In this document: positions 28,418 through 35,133 of the stretch, in pieces
Layout: each line of letters starts with the position of its first letter
Position numbering within the stretch: position 1 is the first letter of the stretch
Assembly: GCF_945952405.1 (NCBI RefSeq)
Contig: NZ_CAMFIA010000009.1
Span: 115,976-179,975, forward strand
DNA length: 64,000 nt
Direction of reading: 5' to 3'
Source of the DNA: an uncultured Stenotrophomonas sp.
Lineage (GTDB): Bacteria; Pseudomonadota; Gammaproteobacteria; Xanthomonadales; Xanthomonadaceae
The notes under the pieces: generated by a model
The model's database searches: none
Told to the model about the DNA's origin: nothing
The model's input: the letters and a program-made list of their open reading frames with translations, nothing else
Translations under genes and position numbers: made by a program

Positions 28418-29557
28418 ATGCAGGGTGCGAGCGTTCGCAGCGGCAGAGTATCCTCGCCTGCTGATGATCCAGCGTGGTCGAGAAACCAGGCAGAGTACGC
28501 GTTGAACATCGTCATTGTTGACGACCAGACGTCCGCGCGGACGATGCTGCGTCACGTCATCGAGGACATCGCGCCGGAACTGAGCGTGTATGACTTCGGT
28601 GACCCGCTGACCGCATTGGCCTGGTGCGAGGCGCATCCGGTCGACCTGCTGCTGCTCGATTACCGCATGCCGGAGATGGACGGGCTTGAGTTCGCCCGTC
28701 GTTTCCGTCGCCTGCCCAAGCACCGCGACATTCCCGTGATCCTGATCACCGTGGTGGGCGACGAGCCGATCCGGCAGGCCGCGCTGGAAGCGGGTGTCAT
28801 CGATTTCCTGGTCAAGCCGATCCGCCCGCGCGAACTGCGCGCGCGCTGCTACAACCTGTTGCAGCTGCGCCAGCAGACCGAGAACGTGAAGCAACGCGCG
28901 TTGTCGCTGGAACAGCGCCTGCTGGCCAGCATGCACGAGGTCGAGGAACGCGAGCGCGAGACCCTGTCACGCCTGGCCAGGGCGATCGAGTTCCGTGATG
29001 CCGGCACCAGTGCCTACCTGGAGCGCATGGCGCGGGTGGCCGGGCTGATCGCCGAGCAGCTGGGCCTGCCGGAGGAAGACGTCAAGCTGATCGAGATGGC
29101 GGCGCCGCTGCATGACATGGGCAAGATCGCCATTCCCGATGCCGTGCTGCTCAAGCAGGGCAAGCTCAACGACGAGGAGCTGGCGATCATGCGCCGGCAC
29201 CCGCGCATCGGCCATGAGCTGCTCAGCGGCAGCCAGAACCGCTTCATCCAGGTCGGCGCGCTGATCGCACTGCGCCACCACGAGCGCTACGACGGCAGCG
29301 GTTACCCGGATGGCCTGGTGGGCGAAGCGATCCCGCTGGAGGCGCGGATCGTGGCCGTGGCCGACGTCTTCGATGCATTGATTTCTCCCCGTCCGTACAA
29401 GGAAGCATGGACCATGGAAGCCACACTGGCTTATCTGTACGCCCAGCGTGGCCGACTGTTCGATCCGCGTTGCGTGGATGCGCTGATGCGCGGCCACTCG
29501 CAGCTGATGGACATCTGCGCCCAGCACTCGACGGCATCGACGCGACCGGGTGGGTGA
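28418..29557 (+). CDS. rpfG: DSF-system response regulator RpfG, HD-GYP cyclic-di-GMP phosphodiesterase
   Basis: 379 residues from the ATG at 28418 with cgggag at good spacing; a TTG at 28502 would begin directly at the receiver domain, but the longer form matches the length of Xanthomonas RpfG. The receiver domain (residues about 29-145) has IVIVDDQTSA, the phosphorylated Asp81 in LLLLDYRMPEMDG and LVKPIRPREL. A linking coiled coil follows, and the HD-GYP domain from about 168 contains HDMGKIAIPD (His232, Asp233) and YDGSGYPDGL (Gly295-Tyr-Pro). Phosphorylated by RpfC upon DSF binding, RpfG degrades cyclic-di-GMP and so links quorum sensing to motility, biofilm and exoenzymes. rpfC begins one base after its stop. 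Confidence 0.96.
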   Translation: MQGASVRSGRVSSPADDPAWSRNQAEYALNIVIVDDQTSARTMLRHVIEDIAPELSVYDFGDPLTALAWCEAHPVDLLLLDYRMPEMDGLEFARRFRRLPKHRDIPVILITVVGDEPIRQAALEAGVIDFLVKPIRPRELRARCYNLLQLRQQTENVKQRALSLEQRLLASMHEVEERERETLSRLARAIEFRDAGTSAYLERMARVAGLIAEQLGLPEEDVKLIEMAAPLHDMGKIAIPDAVLLKQGKLNDEELAIMRRHPRIGHELLSGSQNRFIQVGALIALRHHERYDGSGYPDGLVGEAIPLEARIVAVADVFDALISPRPYKEAWTMEATLAYLYAQRGRLFDPRCVDALMRGHSQLMDICAQHSTASTRPGG

Positions 29558-29558
29558 C

Positions 29559-32279
29559 ATGCAGGACCTGTTCGCACGCGTGAAGCGCCGGCTGGCGCAG
29601 CGTCCGGATTCGGAGCATGGCCAGGCGATCGTGCGGGTGGTGCTGATCTCGCTGATCCTGGTCTACGTGCTGCTGTCGGGCGCCCGCCTGCACCGGCTGG
29701 AGCAGTACCAGGGCGTGCTGGCGACGGTCCTGGTAGGGCTTGGACTGTCGCTGCTGCTGTTTGCCTGGCTGTTGTGGCAGCCGGGGCGCTCCGACCCGCG
29801 GCGGGTGATCGGGATGCTGGCCGACTATGGCCTGATCGCGGTCGGCATGATCCAGATGGGCGAACCACTGGCCTGGGTGTATGCCGTGGTGATGTGGGTG
29901 ACGGTCGGCAACGGATTGCGCTTCGGGCCACGTTACCTGGCCGCCGCCATCGTGATGGCGATGGCCAGTTTCGGCGCCACCGTGCTGTTGACTCCGTACT
30001 GGCAGGCCAACCCCGGCCTGGCCCTTTCCCTGTGGCTGGGACTGCTGGCGGTGCCGTTGTGCTGCTCCTCCCTGCTGCGCCGAAGGATGCGACATCCGAC
30101 CATGGATACCCCCCCTGCTGCCGTCCCGTCACGCTCGCTGCTGGCCCGCTTCAAGCAGCGCCTGGCCGGCCGCGAGGACAGCGAACACGCGCAGAACCTG
30201 ATCCGCATCGTGATCACCGCGTTGTTCATCAGCTACCTGGGCTGGCGCTCGCTCAGCGGTGGCGGTGAAGCGCTGACCACGACCTGGTTGATCCTGGCGT
30301 TCGAACTGACCATCTCCGCCGGCCTGCTGACCGCGATCCTGATCCATCCCGGCGTATCGCATGTGCGCCGGGTGATCGGCATGCTCACCGACTACACCTG
30401 CATGGCCTGGATCATGACCATCCAGGGCGAGCCGGCCGCGCCGCTGTATGCGGTGATGCTGTGGGTGACGATCGGCAACGGCATGCGCTACGGCAGTACC
30501 TATCTGCGCGTGGCCACGGCCATGGGCTGCCTGGCCTTCCTGTGCACGGTGATGTTGTCGCCGTACTGGCGCAGCCACGACTACCTGGGCTGGGGCCTGC
30601 TGCTGGGCCTGGGCGCGATCCCGCTGTACTTCGATTCGCTGCTGCATGCACTCACCCGTGCGGTGGCCGAGGCGCGCCAGGCCAACGAGGCCAAGAGCCG
30701 CTTCCTGGCCAACATGAGCCATGAGTTCCGCACGCCGTTGAACGGCCTGGCCGGCATGACCGAGGTGCTGGCCACCACCCGCCTGGACGACGAGCAGCGC
30801 GAATGCCTAAACACCATCCAGGCGTCCACCCGCAGCCTGCTGGCGCTGGTGGAGGAGGTGCTGGACATCTCCGCGATCGAGGCCGGCAAGGTGCGCGTGG
30901 AATGGCACGAGTTCGCGCTGGCCGACGTGCTGCAGGCGATCAACCTGATCCTGACCCCGCAGACCCGTTCGAAGTCGCTGGATTACCGCGTGCAGGTGGA
31001 CGACAACGTGCCGCCGCGCCTGCTCGGCGATGCCGGCCATCTGCAGCAGATCCTGCTGAACCTGATGGGCAACGCGGTCAAGTTCACCGACAGCGGCTAT
31101 GTGCACCTGCGCGTGTCCAGCCCCGATGCGCTGGGCAGCGAGCGGGTGCGCCTGCGTTTCGAGATCATCGATACCGGCATTGGTGTGCCGGTGGCGCTGC
31201 GTGGCCGCCTGTTCAACGCGTTCGAGCAGGGCGATGTCGGCCTGGCGCGCCGCCACGAAGGTACCGGCCTGGGCACCGCCATCGCCAAGGGCCTGGTCGA
31301 GTCGATGGGCGGCCAGGTCGGCTATGCGCCGAACAGTCCGCGCGGCAGCGTGTTCTGGGTCGAGATCACGCTGGATGTGGCCGAGGTCAGCGCGGCGCCG
31401 GCAGCGCCCGCCGAAGTGGCCGAAGCCGGCAATGTCATCGCGTTCTCCAATCCGTTCCTGCGCCATCGTGCACGGGTGCGCAGCCTGCGGGTGCTGGTGG
31501 CCGACGACCACGAAGCCAACCGCATGGTGCTGCAACGGCTGCTGGAGAAGGCCGGGCACAAGGTCACCTGCGTCAATGGTGGTGCCGAGGTGCTTGATGC
31601 CCTCGAGCAGGCCAGCTATGACGCAGCGATCGTCGACCTGCACATGCCCGGCATGAGCGGCCTGGACCTGCTCAAGCAGCTGCGGGTGATGCAGGCCAGC
31701 GGCATGCCCTATGTGCCGGTGATGGTGCTCAGCGCCGATGTCACCCCCGAGTCGATCCTGCGCTGTGAACAGGCCGGCGCGCGCGCCTTCCTGGCCAAGC
31801 CGGTGGTGGCCACCCGCCTGCTGGAAGTGCTGGCCGACGTGGCGGCCAACACCCGTGCCGACACCGGCATCCAGTCGGTGCCCGCGCTGCCGGTCGGCGA
31901 CGGCGTGCTGGATACGGCGGTACTGGACGAACTGGCCTCCCTGGGCATGGGCGATGGTTTTGAACGCAAGTTCATCGACCAGTGCCTGGTCGACGTGGAT
32001 GCGAGCATGGGTCAGCTGCAGGCCTGCGGCGAGCGCCAGGCCTGGGAGGATTTCCGCGAGCACGCCCACGCACTGCGCGGCGTGGCGAGCAACCTGGGTC
32101 TTGTCCAGGTTGCCGCCTCCAGTGGCGAGATCATGCGCATGGCGGACTGGCAGCTGAAGGGCGAGTGGAACACCCGCCTCGGCAACCTGGTGGCCGCCCT
32201 GCGCAACGGCAGGAATGCGCTGGCCGCCCGTAGTGCGGGAGCACCGCACCGCGACGACAGTGAGCGCAGCCCGTCCTGA
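29559..32279 (+). CDS. rpfC: DSF sensor hybrid histidine kinase RpfC with duplicated sensor module (RpfH-RpfC-like fusion)
   Basis: 906 residues from the ATG at 29559. Senses the fatty-acid signal DSF at the inner membrane, phosphorylates RpfG and, at low DSF, binds and restrains RpfF. Two homologous membrane sensor modules lie in tandem: residues about 5-180 (RVKRRLAQRPDSEHGQAIVR, then RRVIGMLADYGLIAVGMIQM) and 194-370 (RFKQRLAGREDSEHAQNLIR, then RRVIGMLTDYTCMAWIMTIQ), each with about five helices. The kinase follows with His388 in MSHEFRTPLNG and ATP motifs GNAVKFTDSG and DTGIGV, then a receiver with Asp693 in IVDLHMPGM, and an HPt domain with His837 in HALRGVASNLG. Xanthomonas RpfC has one sensor module. 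The two-module form corresponds to the rpf-1 type of S. maltophilia as I recall it. Confidence 0.95.
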   Translation: MQDLFARVKRRLAQRPDSEHGQAIVRVVLISLILVYVLLSGARLHRLEQYQGVLATVLVGLGLSLLLFAWLLWQPGRSDPRRVIGMLADYGLIAVGMIQMGEPLAWVYAVVMWVTVGNGLRFGPRYLAAAIVMAMASFGATVLLTPYWQANPGLALSLWLGLLAVPLCCSSLLRRRMRHPTMDTPPAAVPSRSLLARFKQRLAGREDSEHAQNLIRIVITALFISYLGWRSLSGGGEALTTTWLILAFELTISAGLLTAILIHPGVSHVRRVIGMLTDYTCMAWIMTIQGEPAAPLYAVMLWVTIGNGMRYGSTYLRVATAMGCLAFLCTVMLSPYWRSHDYLGWGLLLGLGAIPLYFDSLLHALTRAVAEARQANEAKSRFLANMSHEFRTPLNGLAGMTEVLATTRLDDEQRECLNTIQASTRSLLALVEEVLDISAIEAGKVRVEWHEFALADVLQAINLILTPQTRSKSLDYRVQVDDNVPPRLLGDAGHLQQILLNLMGNAVKFTDSGYVHLRVSSPDALGSERVRLRFEIIDTGIGVPVALRGRLFNAFEQGDVGLARRHEGTGLGTAIAKGLVESMGGQVGYAPNSPRGSVFWVEITLDVAEVSAAPAAPAEVAEAGNVIAFSNPFLRHRARVRSLRVLVADDHEANRMVLQRLLEKAGHKVTCVNGGAEVLDALEQASYDAAIVDLHMPGMSGLDLLKQLRVMQASGMPYVPVMVLSADVTPESILRCEQAGARAFLAKPVVATRLLEVLADVAANTRADTGIQSVPALPVGDGVLDTAVLDELASLGMGDGFERKFIDQCLVDVDASMGQLQACGERQAWEDFREHAHALRGVASNLGLVQVAASSGEIMRMADWQLKGEWNTRLGNLVAALRNGRNALAARSAGAPHRDDSERSPS

Positions 32280-32291
32280 ACCGCCGGGCTG

Positions 32292-33161
32292 TCAGGCCGG
32301 GTCGCCATTGCGCCGGGCCTGTGCCCGCACCAGCCGATCCATCGTGCGCAGGGACTTCTCGCCGAGCTGCATGGCAGTGTCCACCCAGATCTCGGTGATG
32401 CGCATCATTTCGTGCAGCGGGACCATGCTGGCGATCTCGTTGACTTCGCGCATCGCCGCCCAGGCATGCGGAATGCGCTTGCTGTCCTTGATCACCTGTT
32501 CCACCGCGGCAACGCCTTCGCCCACCGGCACCACGATGTCGACCAGGCCCATCTCCTTCAGCTGGTAGGCGGTGTAGAGATTGCCTTCCAGCATGATCTT
32601 CTCGGCCAGCCGCGGGCTGATCCGCTGGCACAGGAAGGAGTAGGCGCCCATGCCGGGGAACAGGTCGAACAGCACCTCCGGCAGGCCCATCAGTACGCCT
32701 TCCTCGGCGACGATGGTGTGGCAGCTCAGTGCCGCCTCGAAGCCGCCGCCCAGCGCATTGCCCTGCACCAGGGCGATGCTGTGTGCACGCGCGCCGAGAC
32801 CGGCGTGGAAGGCGTGCACCCCGCGCACGCAGCGCTGGGCATAGTCGAGCAGGCGGGCACGGTCGCCTTCGCGGATCAGGCGGCAGAACAGTTCGAGGTC
32901 GCCGCCCAGGTTGAACACGTCACTGTCCGAAGCCAGCACGACATGGGGCGACAGCACGTGCGAGGCGCTGAGGCGATCGCCGAGCTCGCGCTGGTAATCG
33001 ACGATGTCATCGACCAGGCGCGAGGCAAAGCACGGCCGGCCCGGCTGGTTGACCAGGTTGGCATGCATGTGGATCCAGTAGACATCCCGCTCCGGCTCTT
33101 CGGTGATGCGCAGGGTGGGGTGCTGCGAGGGGCGGGTGATGATGGGGCGTACTGCAGACAT
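32292..33161 (-). CDS. rpfF: DSF synthase RpfF, crotonase family
   Basis: 289 residues, the same length as Xanthomonas RpfF. A bifunctional crotonase-fold enzyme that dehydrates 3-hydroxyacyl-ACP and then releases the cis-2-unsaturated fatty acid DSF by thioester cleavage. The catalytic glutamates are Glu142 in NALGGGFEAALSC and Glu162 in MGLPEVLFDLFPGMGAYSFL, one residue offset from Glu141 and Glu161 of the Xanthomonas enzyme. HVVLASDSDVFNLGGDLELF is the family's oxyanion-side segment. It faces rpfC tail to tail with 12 bases between the stop codons. A terminator downstream of rpfB at 33302 suggests that rpfF also has its own promoter in the 33162-33300 gap. Confidence 0.97.
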   Translation of the reverse strand: MSAVRPIITRPSQHPTLRITEEPERDVYWIHMHANLVNQPGRPCFASRLVDDIVDYQRELGDRLSASHVLSPHVVLASDSDVFNLGGDLELFCRLIREGDRARLLDYAQRCVRGVHAFHAGLGARAHSIALVQGNALGGGFEAALSCHTIVAEEGVLMGLPEVLFDLFPGMGAYSFLCQRISPRLAEKIMLEGNLYTAYQLKEMGLVDIVVPVGEGVAAVEQVIKDSKRIPHAWAAMREVNEIASMVPLHEMMRITEIWVDTAMQLGEKSLRTMDRLVRAQARRNGDPA

Positions 33162-33360: not shown

Positions 33361-35037
33361 TTACTGGGCGGGCGTATCACGCAGCTCGCGACGGAGAATC
33401 TTGCCGACGTTGGTCTTCGGCAGCTCCTTGCGGAACTCCACGATGCGGGGGTGCTTGTAACCGGTCAGGTTTGCCCGCGCGTGTTCCTTGACCATCTCGG
33501 CGGTCAGGTTCGGGTCCTTCTTCACGATCACCACCTTCACCACCTCGCCGGACTTCTCGTCCGGTACGCCGACCGCGGCCACTTCCAGCACGCCCGGCAT
33601 CATCGCGATGACGTCCTCGACCTCGTTCGGGTACACGTTGAAGCCGGACACCAGGATCATGTCCTTCTTGCGGTCGACGATGTAGAAGAACCCGTGCTCG
33701 TCCATCTTCGCCATGTCGCCGGTGTGCAGCCAGCCGTCGGCGTCGATCGCCTTCTCGGTCTCCTCCGGTCGCTGCCAGTAGCCCTTCATCACCTGCGGGC
33801 CCTTGATGCACAGCTCGCCCACTTCACCCAGTGCCAGGATGTTGCCGTTGTCGTCCTTGATGCAGGCATCGGTGGACGGGATCGGCAGGCCGATCGAGCC
33901 GTTGTACTCGGGCAGGGTGAGCGGATTGATGCAGGCCGCCGGTGAGGTCTCGGTCAGGCCGTAGGCCTCGACCAGGGTCACGCCGGTGGTCTTCTTCCAG
34001 CGCTCGGCCACCGCGCGCTGCACCGCCATGCCGCCACCCAGGGTGAACTTGACCGAAGAGAAGTCGATCTCGTCGAAGCCGGGGGTGTTGAGCAGGCCGT
34101 TGAACAGCGTGTTGACGCCGGTGATGGCGGTGAAGCGGGTGCCCTTGAGCTCCTTGACGAAGCCCTTCATGTCACGCGGGTTGGTGATCAGGTGGTTGCA
34201 GCCACCGAACTTCATGAAGACCAGGCCGTTCGCGGTCAGCGCGAAGATGTGGTACAGCGGCAGGGCGGTGATGATCACTTCCTTGCCCGGCTCGATGCCC
34301 GAGGTCGACAGCCACGCCGATGCCTGCTGCATGTTGGCAATCAGGTTGCGGTTGGTCAGCATCGCGCCTTTGGCCACGCCGGTGGTGCCACCGGTGTACT
34401 GCAGGAAGGCGATGTCGTCATGGTCGATTTCGACCGGCGGAAGCGTGTGTCGGCTGCCCAGCTTGAGCGCCTGCTTGAAGCGGACCGCGCCCTTGATGTG
34501 GTAGTTGGGCACCATCTTCTTGACGTACTTCAGCACGAAGTTGACGATCGCGCCCTTGGCGCCGAGCAGGTCGCCCAGGCCGGTGGTGATCACGTGCTTG
34601 ACCGGCGTATCGGCGATGACCTGCTCGACGGTGTCGCCGAAGTTGTCGACCACCACCAGTGCGCTGACGCCTGCATCGACCAGCTGGTGCTTGAGTTCGC
34701 GTGCGGTGTACAGCGGGTTGACGTTGACCACGGTCAGACCGGCGCGCAGCACGCCGAAGGTGGCCACCGGGTACTGCAGGCAGTTGGGCATCATCAGGGC
34801 GACGCGGTCGCCCTTCTTGAGCTTGAGCTCGCCCAGCAGGTAGGCGGCGAACTGCTCGACCAGGGTGTTGGTCTCACCATAGGTGATGACCTTGCCGAAG
34901 CTGGAGTAGGCCGGGCGGTCGCGGAATTTCGCGACGGAAGCGTCGAAGACCGAAGCTACCGAATGGAACTCGTTGACGTCGATTTCGGCGGGAACGCCTT
35001 TCGGATAGCTCTGCAGCCAGGGACGATCCAGACTCAT
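33361..35037 (-). CDS. rpfB: Long-chain acyl-CoA ligase RpfB (FadD-like)
   Basis: 558 residues from the ATG at 35037, which has a near-perfect ggaggggg ribosome-binding site; the open frame continues upstream without support. It activates free fatty acids with ATP and CoA; in xanthomonads RpfB recycles fatty acids released by RpfF and turns over DSF. AMP-forming ligase motifs: FLQYTGGTTGVAKGAML (ATP/AMP P-loop), EAYGLTETSPAAC, HTGDMAKMDEHGFFYIVDRK and the C-terminal KDMILVSGFNVYPNEVED with a late catalytic lysine region (PKTNVGKILRREL). Next to rpfF as in Xanthomonas. Confidence 0.95.
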   Translation of the reverse strand: MSLDRPWLQSYPKGVPAEIDVNEFHSVASVFDASVAKFRDRPAYSSFGKVITYGETNTLVEQFAAYLLGELKLKKGDRVALMMPNCLQYPVATFGVLRAGLTVVNVNPLYTARELKHQLVDAGVSALVVVDNFGDTVEQVIADTPVKHVITTGLGDLLGAKGAIVNFVLKYVKKMVPNYHIKGAVRFKQALKLGSRHTLPPVEIDHDDIAFLQYTGGTTGVAKGAMLTNRNLIANMQQASAWLSTSGIEPGKEVIITALPLYHIFALTANGLVFMKFGGCNHLITNPRDMKGFVKELKGTRFTAITGVNTLFNGLLNTPGFDEIDFSSVKFTLGGGMAVQRAVAERWKKTTGVTLVEAYGLTETSPAACINPLTLPEYNGSIGLPIPSTDACIKDDNGNILALGEVGELCIKGPQVMKGYWQRPEETEKAIDADGWLHTGDMAKMDEHGFFYIVDRKKDMILVSGFNVYPNEVEDVIAMMPGVLEVAAVGVPDEKSGEVVKVVIVKKDPNLTAEMVKEHARANLTGYKHPRIVEFRKELPKTNVGKILRRELRDTPAQ

Positions 35038-35133
35038 ATTCCCCCTCCAGGAATCGTGATGTTTTAGGTTCCGGCCCTGAGCGTATCGAGAATGGCCGGT
35101 CATTGCAGCATACCCCGGCGTAGGGAAAACGCG

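What the first reader, a model, noticed from the sequence alone, without database searches (positions are those of the whole stretch)
29559..30720. RpfC carries a duplicated sensor module that looks like a fused RpfH
Residues about 5-180 and 194-370 of RpfC align to each other: RPDSEHGQAIVR with REDSEHAQNLIR, RRVIGMLADYGLI with RRVIGMLTDYTCM, VMWVTVGNGLRFG with VMLWVTIGNGMRYG. Xanthomonas campestris has one such module in RpfC and a separate small membrane protein, RpfH, resembling it, encoded between rpfG and rpfC. Here no rpfH exists and the extra module lies exactly in that place, in frame. An internal ATG at 30102 (MDTPPAAVPSRS) sits where a one-module RpfC would start, but without a visible ribosome-binding site. 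The parsimonious reading is that the stop/start between rpfH and rpfC was lost, making a ten-helix sensor. S. maltophilia strains are known to differ in five- versus ten-helix RpfC, and this would be the longer type.
Basis: partly seen in the sequence, partly recalled or inferred. Interest (0 to 1): 0.75.

Follow-up and report, generated by a model that had tools for sequence, protein, structure and literature searches.

The report
Quorum-sensor kinase with displaced second sensor
A bacterial quorum-sensing receptor carries two sensor units, most likely because an incoming receptor gene was joined behind the sensor of the gene it displaced, and the small gene rpfH of Xanthomonas looks like a parallel leftover of the same kind.

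Summary
The repeat is real: two sensor modules (29559-30107, 30120-30671), 43% identical over 180 residues (E 2e-41). The architecture is published for S. maltophilia rpf-1 strains ("ten-TMR" RpfC, 5' repeat similar to rpfH; PMC4517397), so the object is known; its origin was not resolved in what I could read. A recent internal duplication is rejected (p 1e-81). Module 2 belongs with Xanthomonas-type RpfC (type B), module 1 with sensors of one-module rpf-2-type RpfC of its own genus (type A; median 71% identity, 45% to RpfH). rpfG and rpfB follow the genus; module 2, kinase and rpfF do not. So RpfC-1 is best read as an incoming rpfC-rpfF cassette joined behind the resident sensor. RpfH is probably a separate leftover, with 3' ends like that of rpfG; a shared origin is not fully excluded. 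Module 1 is under purifying selection and, in at least 11 of 12 members, keeps 42 of 44 conserved positions; the two lost lie in the last helix. Models give six helices per module; reporter data on a homologue disagree. What module 1 does is inferred.

The parts
28505..29557 (+). rpfG (open frame from 28418), response regulator; resident, genus-like flank
   Evidence: [quoted passage not shown]
29559..30107 (+). module 1: type-A sensor (residues 1-183 of the 906-aa protein); rpf-2-type lineage of the same genus
   Evidence: dN/dS median 0.16
30081..30119 (+). junction: type-A similarity ends after the Leu-Leu-Arg that closes helix 6; variable linker with an in-frame ATG at 30102 kept in 12 of 12 two-module genes
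30120..30671 (+). module 2: type-B sensor, the one attached to the kinase
   Evidence: AlphaFold2 model with six long helices before the kinase, mean pLDDT 75
30672..32279 (+). kinase part of RpfC: HisKA (30690-30887), HATPase (31026-31373), receiver (31491-31832), Hpt (31974-32207)
   Evidence: Pfam
32292..33161 (-). rpfF, DSF synthase, type B (goes with module 2 and kinase)
   Evidence: rpfF tree, 38 type-B rows one side of a branch, support 100
33361..35040 (-). rpfB (open frame to 35223), right-hand resident flank
   Evidence: [quoted passage not shown]

Best explanation
RpfC here is a chimera left by allele replacement. (1) The family has two old versions of the rpfC sensor and rpfF, type A and type B. 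(2) In an ancestor of the rpf-1 Stenotrophomonas a type-B cassette (rpfC-B plus rpfF-B) entered the locus between the resident rpfG and rpfB and was joined in frame behind the resident type-A sensor, just after its sixth helix; the resident kinase and rpfF were lost. (3) Xanthomonas rpfH arose by a separate event of the same kind: a type-A sensor related to those of other Xanthomonas, ending in a stretch that resembles the 3' end of rpfG with its stop, then rpfC-B. (4) Inferred mechanism: module 2 drives the kinase when it binds DSF. Module 1 is still a folded membrane sensor unit that keeps the DSF-sensing motif but has lost helix-6 residues that kinase-attached sensors keep, so it probably acts on module 2 sideways (ligand capture, dimer partner or damper of autoinhibition) and not directly on the kinase. 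Steps 1 and 2 rest on trees and identity profiles, step 3 on trees and an end-match test, step 4 is inference.
For: Module tree, 121 rows: A/B split 100/100; m1 (12 rows) with rpf-2-type Stenotrophomonas sensors 100/97; RpfH (12 rows) with three type-A Xanthomonas genomes and [P.] boreopolis 99/90. Identity of window m1: median 71% to rpf-2 sensors, 45% to RpfH, 40% to m2. Flanks: rpf-1 and rpf-2 Stenotrophomonas together in rpfG (98) and rpfB (100); rpf-1 plus Xanthomonas-B as one clade rejected for rpfG (p 3e-76) and rpfB (p 4e-82), while rpfF type B is one clade (100) and the kinases of rpf-1, Xanthomonas-B and three relatives form one clade of 31 (99). Nucleotide identity, window against rpf-2 strain SJTL3, 150-nt steps: rpfG 82-96%, m1 64-80% (last step half unaligned), module 2 absent, kinase 56-86%, rpfF 50-75%, rpfB 88-97%; a like pattern in Xanthomonas. 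RpfH 3' ends match Xanthomonas rpfG ends anchored at the stop: 57-65% over 30 nt in 9 of 12 (0-2 of 1000 codon shuffles as good), 48% in L050 (4 of 1000), 47% in L054 (2 of 1000), no match in L048 (105 of 1000); against ends of rpfC, rpfF and rpfB (40 loci each at most) the lowest count is 45 of 1000. Of 44 positions conserved in 99 kinase-attached sensors, G159 and Y170 are lost in all 12 m1 and in all 14 RpfH, RpfH losing four more; R15, D17, E19 and Q22 of Cai 2017 are kept in 11-12 of 12 m1 and 14 of 14 RpfH. dN/dS median 0.16 for m1, 0.18 for working rpf-2 sensors.
Against: The AU test of m1+RpfH gave p 0.066 with all rows; the rejection (p 0.0017) came after I removed six long rows and added two loci. 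Both leftovers end at about the same place, after helix 6, and the X. hortorum linker aligns to the window's linker better than 200 of 200 shuffles (L053 191, L050 188, L063 128 of 200; the aligned part of the first three includes codons of the homologous Leu-Leu-Arg), which a shared event would explain. The Stenotrophomonas linker shows no clear rpfG-like tail. The rpfG-tail signal is weaker by other measures: last ten residues against RpfG ends, 8 of 12 loci with at most 7 of 1000 shuffles as good, 4 of 12 with 105-314; free local alignment gave a consistent signal for L053 and L116 only. By summed ratio dN/dS is 0.26 for m1 against 0.17 for rpf-2 sensors, and m1 exceeds m2 in 52 of 55 matched pairs. 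S. cyclobalanopsidis L047, in the same clade, has lost module 1.
Confidence: 0.7

Rival explanations
1. One reading: an ancestral rpfH and rpfC, as in Xanthomonas, lost the stop and start between them and became one gene.
For: Same gene order and position; RpfH and module 1 are both type A; both end after helix 6; all-row AU test does not reject m1+RpfH at 0.05 (p 0.066).
Against: Module 1 is nearest to rpf-2-type RpfC sensors (median 71% against 45% to RpfH; 100/97); second AU test p 0.0017; rpfH and rpfC lie in different frames in 12 of 12 intact Xanthomonas loci; no clear rpfG-like tail in the Stenotrophomonas linker.
Confidence: 0.1
2. One joining event in a common ancestor or by transfer, after which homologous exchange through rpfG replaced the leftover by local type-A sequence in each genus.
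For: About the same joint position in both genera; linker similarity between X. hortorum and the window; the type-B kinases of both genera and three relatives form one clade; in the rpfG tree neither rpf-1 nor rpf-2 strains form a split of their own, so exchange at this flank is likely.
Against: The joints differ: rpfG-like tail and stop in Xanthomonas, 24 nt without a clear such tail in Stenotrophomonas. The deeper branching order of m1 and m2 agrees, so m1 appears to travel with m2.
Confidence: 0.18
3. Recent internal duplication of the sensor inside RpfC.
For: The two halves are 43% identical and adjacent.
Against: m1+m2 as one clade costs 152 log units, p-AU 1.1e-81.
Confidence: 0.01
4. 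The origin is as proposed but module 1 is a harmless passenger with no role.
For: Lost in L047; RpfH is broken or mostly deleted in L052, L061 and L064, and rpfH deletion in Xcc altered only four genes (PMC3744752, passages); dN/dS of m1 exceeds that of m2 in 52 of 55 matched pairs.
Against: dN/dS of m1 is far below 1 (median 0.16, summed 0.26); 42 of 44 conserved positions kept in at least 11 of 12; module 1 reads open in 12 of 12 two-module loci, L055 with its frameshift in module 2 included.
Confidence: 0.25

Closest known systems
RpfC-1 ('ten-TMR' RpfC) of S. maltophilia rpf-1 strains such as K279a (PMC4517397, PMC5928129)
   Same: Same architecture and gene order; the 5' repeat was already noted as similar to rpfH, and horizontal exchange of the two variants was proposed.
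   Different: The passages I could read compare the repeat with RpfH and give no tree of the modules; here module 1 is assigned to the rpf-2-type receptor and twelve helices are predicted.
RpfH of Xanthomonas (rpfGHC operon; PMC3744752, PMC3071791)
   Same: Type-A sensor module without kinase, between rpfG and rpfC, DSF motif kept, same two helix-6 positions changed.
   Different: Separate gene in another frame, different nearest relatives, rpfG-like tail, weaker constraint, broken in some species.
RpfC-2 (one-module) of rpf-2 Stenotrophomonas
   Same: Its sensor is the nearest relative of module 1.
   Different: One module, type-A rpfF; reported to keep RpfF-2 repressed until DSF is present (PMC4517397, passages).
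PA1396 of P. aeruginosa (PMC6536496) and CqsS (named there)
   Same: Kinases with short-looped membrane sensors for fatty signals; the paper states that the PA1396 input domain resembles that of RpfC.
   Different: One module; PA1396 has a published five-helix reporter map; a relation to CqsS was not tested here.

Membership tests
RpfC DSF sensor kinase | Membrane sensor, HisKA, HATPase, receiver and Hpt in this order | tested here: met
   Pfam hits; helical sensor models
RpfC DSF sensor kinase | Between rpfG and convergent rpfF | tested here: met
RpfC DSF sensor kinase | DSF-essential residues R15, D17, S18, E19, Q22 (Cai 2017) | tested here: met
   Both modules of the window carry them (alignment)
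RpfC DSF sensor kinase | Binds DSF and signals to RpfG | not testable with these tools
   needs protein
RpfC-1 of rpf-1 Stenotrophomonas | Two sensor modules in one frame with type-B rpfF | tested here: met
RpfH (orthologue of module 1) | Module 1 and RpfH form one clade | tested here: inconclusive
   p-AU 0.066 with all rows, 0.0017 with the changed row set; best trees keep them apart
Recent internal duplication | The two modules are sisters | tested here: not met
   p-AU 1.1e-81
Five-helix RpfC sensor (published) | Five TM helices, N-terminus in the periplasm | tested here: inconclusive
   Models and charges give six helices with N inside; PA1396 reporter fusions favour five (PMC6536496); hydropathy scan six and five peaks

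The most novel reading that the evidence does not exclude
A and B are two dialects of the same signalling locus: sensor type and rpfF type go together in 96 of 96 loci with a usable rpfF, although the kinase, which lies between them, does not always follow. The two-module receptor would then be a receptor with two ears, one for its own rpfF-B signal and one inherited from the displaced rpf-2-type system, letting rpf-1 strains listen to rpf-2-type neighbours; RpfH would be a detached second ear.
Probability: 0.2. Interest if true: 0.8.

Novelty: already known. Interest (0 to 1): 0.55.

Why it matters
The role of RpfH was called enigmatic in 2013 (PMC3744752). The leftover model gives it an origin and links it to the two rpf variants of Stenotrophomonas, which differ in when they make DSF. 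It predicts that sensor type and synthase type stay matched, that module 1 can be removed without killing the kinase, and that any effect of removal is on tuning. The natural tandem of two modules also bears on the helix count: two five-helix units in tandem would force one of them upside down, two six-helix units would not.

Tried and rejected
Recent internal duplication: rejected. A stop-separated rpfH in the same frame as rpfC in other genera (suggested by rows with one stop inside): checked in L065, where rpfG and rpfC lie in one frame with no module between them; not checked in the other genomes. Continuation of RpfH into the kinase: in the six alignments shown, similarity to type A ends within about a dozen residues after helix 6, so no kinase remnant was seen. 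rpfG-like tail in the Stenotrophomonas linker: no clear signal. Internal start at 30102: ATG kept in 12 of 12 two-module genes, no conserved ribosome-binding site; undecided. 'All type-B kinases are one clade': rejected, p 1.6e-98. Solved folds: no hit at E <= 0.001; best 7yzk (adenylyl cyclase Rv1625c, E 0.046) is only a lead. Solved sequences: the best stretches cover the kinase start, profile positions 174-247, only. The sensor modules alone have no hit in Pfam up to E 1 or NCBIfam up to 0.01. Alignments A1 and A3 put type-A rows on module 2 and were not used; A4 was used for the two-module model, whose confidence is low (pLDDT 64, pTM 0.43), so the arrangement of the two modules is not interpreted.
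Full report
Observation. The open frame 29559-32279 encodes RpfC. Its first two stretches are homologous to each other, 77 of 180 identical, E 2e-41. The window's own genome has no other place that matches the 369-aa sensor region at E <= 1e-5, so no separate rpfH was found. Of 297 genomes of the family searched (rows of the best matches listed) only same-genus genomes matched the query from end to end: 8 of the 17 same-genus genomes listed, own genome included.

Data set. One search annotated rpfG, sensor modules, kinase, rpfF and rpfB in each. Types: 12 with two modules in one gene, L055 among them with a frameshift in module 2; 12 with a separate intact rpfH; 59 with one type-A module; 15 with one type-B module, among them L047 (module 1 deleted) and L052, L061, L064 (Xanthomonas with a lost or broken rpfH). 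The script first counted L055 as type A (60); from then on it is counted as two-module.

Trees of the modules. With 121 rows and 183 columns the sensors fall into types A and B (100/100). Module 2, Xanthomonas RpfC, S. panacihumi and several other genera are B. Module 1 (12 rows, 100/100) lies with the sensors of rpf-2-type Stenotrophomonas (32 rows together, 100/97). RpfH (12 rows, 100/100) lies with three type-A Xanthomonas genomes and [Pseudomonas] boreopolis (99/90). A first quick tree of 99 rows gave a like picture. Forcing m1 and m2 together is rejected (p 1.1e-81). Forcing m1 and RpfH together gave p 0.066 with all rows, and p 0.0017 after I dropped six long rows (L115, m1 of L044, L079, RpfH of L056, L105, L132) and added the modules of L022 and L038. 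In that second set the m1 plus rpf-2 group had 94/96 and the RpfH group 98/89.

Flanks and cassette. In the rpfG and rpfB trees rpf-1 and rpf-2 Stenotrophomonas are together (98 and 100), and neither forms a split of its own; the nearest rows to X. hortorum outside type-B Xanthomonas are type-A Xanthomonas (path lengths 0.00-0.07). Holding rpf-1 Stenotrophomonas and type-B Xanthomonas together is rejected for both flanks (p 3e-76, 4e-82). rpfF splits into B (38) and A (58) with support 100, matching the sensor type in the 96 of 98 loci that have a usable rpfF. The kinase of rpf-1, Xanthomonas-B and L049, L062, L110 is one clade of 31 rows (99), but the eight other type-B kinases mix with type-A ones; one clade of all 39 B is rejected (p 1.6e-98). 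On a tree of rpfG+rpfB, sensor and rpfF types change together in 7 of 7 independent pairs on starred branches (p 0.016), sensor and kinase clade in 5 of 7 (p 0.06). Full RpfF/RpfC association was already published for an S. maltophilia population (PMC4517397, passages); the wider form is from these calls. Linkage could explain much of it, but the kinase lies between the two.

Profile along the locus. Against rpf-2 strain SJTL3 the window has, in 150-nt steps, 82-96% nucleotide identity in rpfG, 64-80% in module 1 (the last step is half unaligned), nothing aligned in most of module 2, 56-86% in the kinase, 50-75% in rpfF and 88-97% in rpfB. X. hortorum against three type-A Xanthomonas shows a like mosaic, as far as the fetched stretches reach into rpfB. 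Recombination breakpoints in these genes had been reported (PMC4517397, section 18).

The joints. Type-A similarity of module 1 ends after the Leu-Leu-Arg closing helix 6; a linker of eight codons, the first being this Arg or the next residue, leads to the in-frame ATG 30102, kept in 12 of 12 two-module genes. In L047 a few codons of the module 1 start remain and the gene would begin at the corresponding ATG. In Xanthomonas 106-115 nt lie between the end of helix 6 and the rpfC start in the seven loci measured. Aligned at the stop codon, the last 30 nt of rpfH match type-B Xanthomonas rpfG ends at 57-65% in 9 of 12 loci (0-2 of 1000 codon shuffles as good), 48% in L050 (4 of 1000), 47% in L054 (2 of 1000), and not in L048 (105 of 1000), whose frame ends elsewhere. 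Against the ends of rpfC, rpfF and rpfB the lowest count is 45 of 1000; against rpfG ends of type-B-only genera identity is 28-39%. Two other tests were weaker: the last ten residues gave at most 7 of 1000 in 8 of 12 loci and 105-314 in the other four, and free local alignment gave a consistent signal for L053 and L116 only. The loci are related, so these are not 12 independent cases. I read the tail as an rpfG end carried in with the cassette; a local duplication of the resident rpfG end is not excluded. The Stenotrophomonas linker shows no clear rpfG-like tail, yet the X. hortorum linker aligns to it better than 200 of 200 shuffles (L053 191, L050 188, L063 128), partly through the homologous Leu-Leu-Arg codons; this favours a shared event.

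Constraint. Median pairwise dN/dS (NG86): m1 0.16, m2 0.12, rpf-2 sensors 0.18, RpfH 0.26, Xanthomonas RpfC sensor 0.05; summed ratios 0.26, 0.16, 0.17, 0.27 and 0.05. m1 exceeds m2 in 52 of 55 matched pairs, RpfH exceeds the RpfC sensor in 90 of 90. Pairs are not independent. Of 44 positions conserved at 95% or more in 99 kinase-attached sensors, two are lost in all 12 m1, G159 and Y170 of the module-2 numbering, both in helix 6; the others are kept in 11 or 12 of 12. RpfH (14 rows) has lost these two throughout, with other residues, and E104, Y128, G163 and A166. If losses fell at random among the 44, both m1 losses would lie among the six of RpfH with probability 0.016. The DSF-essential R15, D17, E19 and Q22 of Cai 2017 (PMC5391125, passages) are kept in both.

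Helices. The mean K+R content, summed by me, is 12.2 for the four segments that a six-helix, N-inside model puts in the cytoplasm and 2.0 for the three it puts outside. AlphaFold2 of module 2 plus the start of the kinase gives a short helix and six long ones (pLDDT 75, pTM 0.56); the two-module model gives six and six at low confidence. Against this: a simple hydropathy scan gave six peaks in module 1 and five in module 2, Cai 2017 draws five helices and a putative periplasmic N-terminus, and PhoA/LacZ fusions of PA1396 fit five (PMC6536496, passages). If PA1396 numbering is carried over by the stated E8/E19 match, its sites at 107-109, 137-141 and 205 agree with six helices and those at 4-6, 37-38 and 66-70 do not. 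Two five-helix units in tandem would need one unit inverted; by eye both modules have the same charge pattern.

Function. Shown: homology, placement, constraint. Inferred: module 2 is the driver; module 1 tunes it. Published: rpf-1 strains make DSF in pure culture, rpf-2 strains only when DSF is present, and the authors suggested that the longer sensor is more promiscuous (PMC4517397, passages). That fits a tuning role but does not show it; rpfF and kinase differ as well. Xcc rpfH deletion altered four genes (PMC3744752, passages).

Novelty. The architecture is known. That module 1 is the sensor of the displaced rpf-2-type receptor, that RpfH is a parallel leftover with an rpfG-like tail, and the shared helix-6 losses did not appear in the listings (65 listed 12 of 18 papers, 72 listed 10 of 27) or in the passages read; the founding paper (Huedo 2014, PMC4054175) was not held.

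Noticed in passing
L047 3843-4025: S. cyclobalanopsidis belongs to the two-module clade but has lost nearly all of module 1; its rpfC would start at the ATG that corresponds to window 30102.
   Followed up: partly
L055 4571-5100: S. rhizophila GN_RF2.1: module 2 is split between two frames; real or sequencing error unknown.
   Followed up: no
L061 4004-4503, L064 4007-4491, L052 3916-4291: rpfH matches in two frames in X. bromi and X. populi and is largely deleted in X. prunicola.
   Followed up: partly
L053 6800-7655: rpfF of X. phaseoli ATCC 49119 matches in three frames, so probably broken.
   Followed up: no
L069 2944-4007: rpfG of Stenotrophomonas sp. RAC2 is split between two frames.
   Followed up: no
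L065, L079, L125-L128, L134, L135: Type-B sensor and rpfF with a kinase outside the Xanthomonas/Stenotrophomonas type-B kinase clade: possible recombination inside rpfC between two parts that stay matched.
   Followed up: partly
window 32280-32291: Only 12 nt separate the convergent ends of rpfC and rpfF.
   Followed up: no
model of window 30120-30869: Best though not significant fold match is mycobacterial adenylyl cyclase Rv1625c (7yzk, E 0.046).
   Followed up: no
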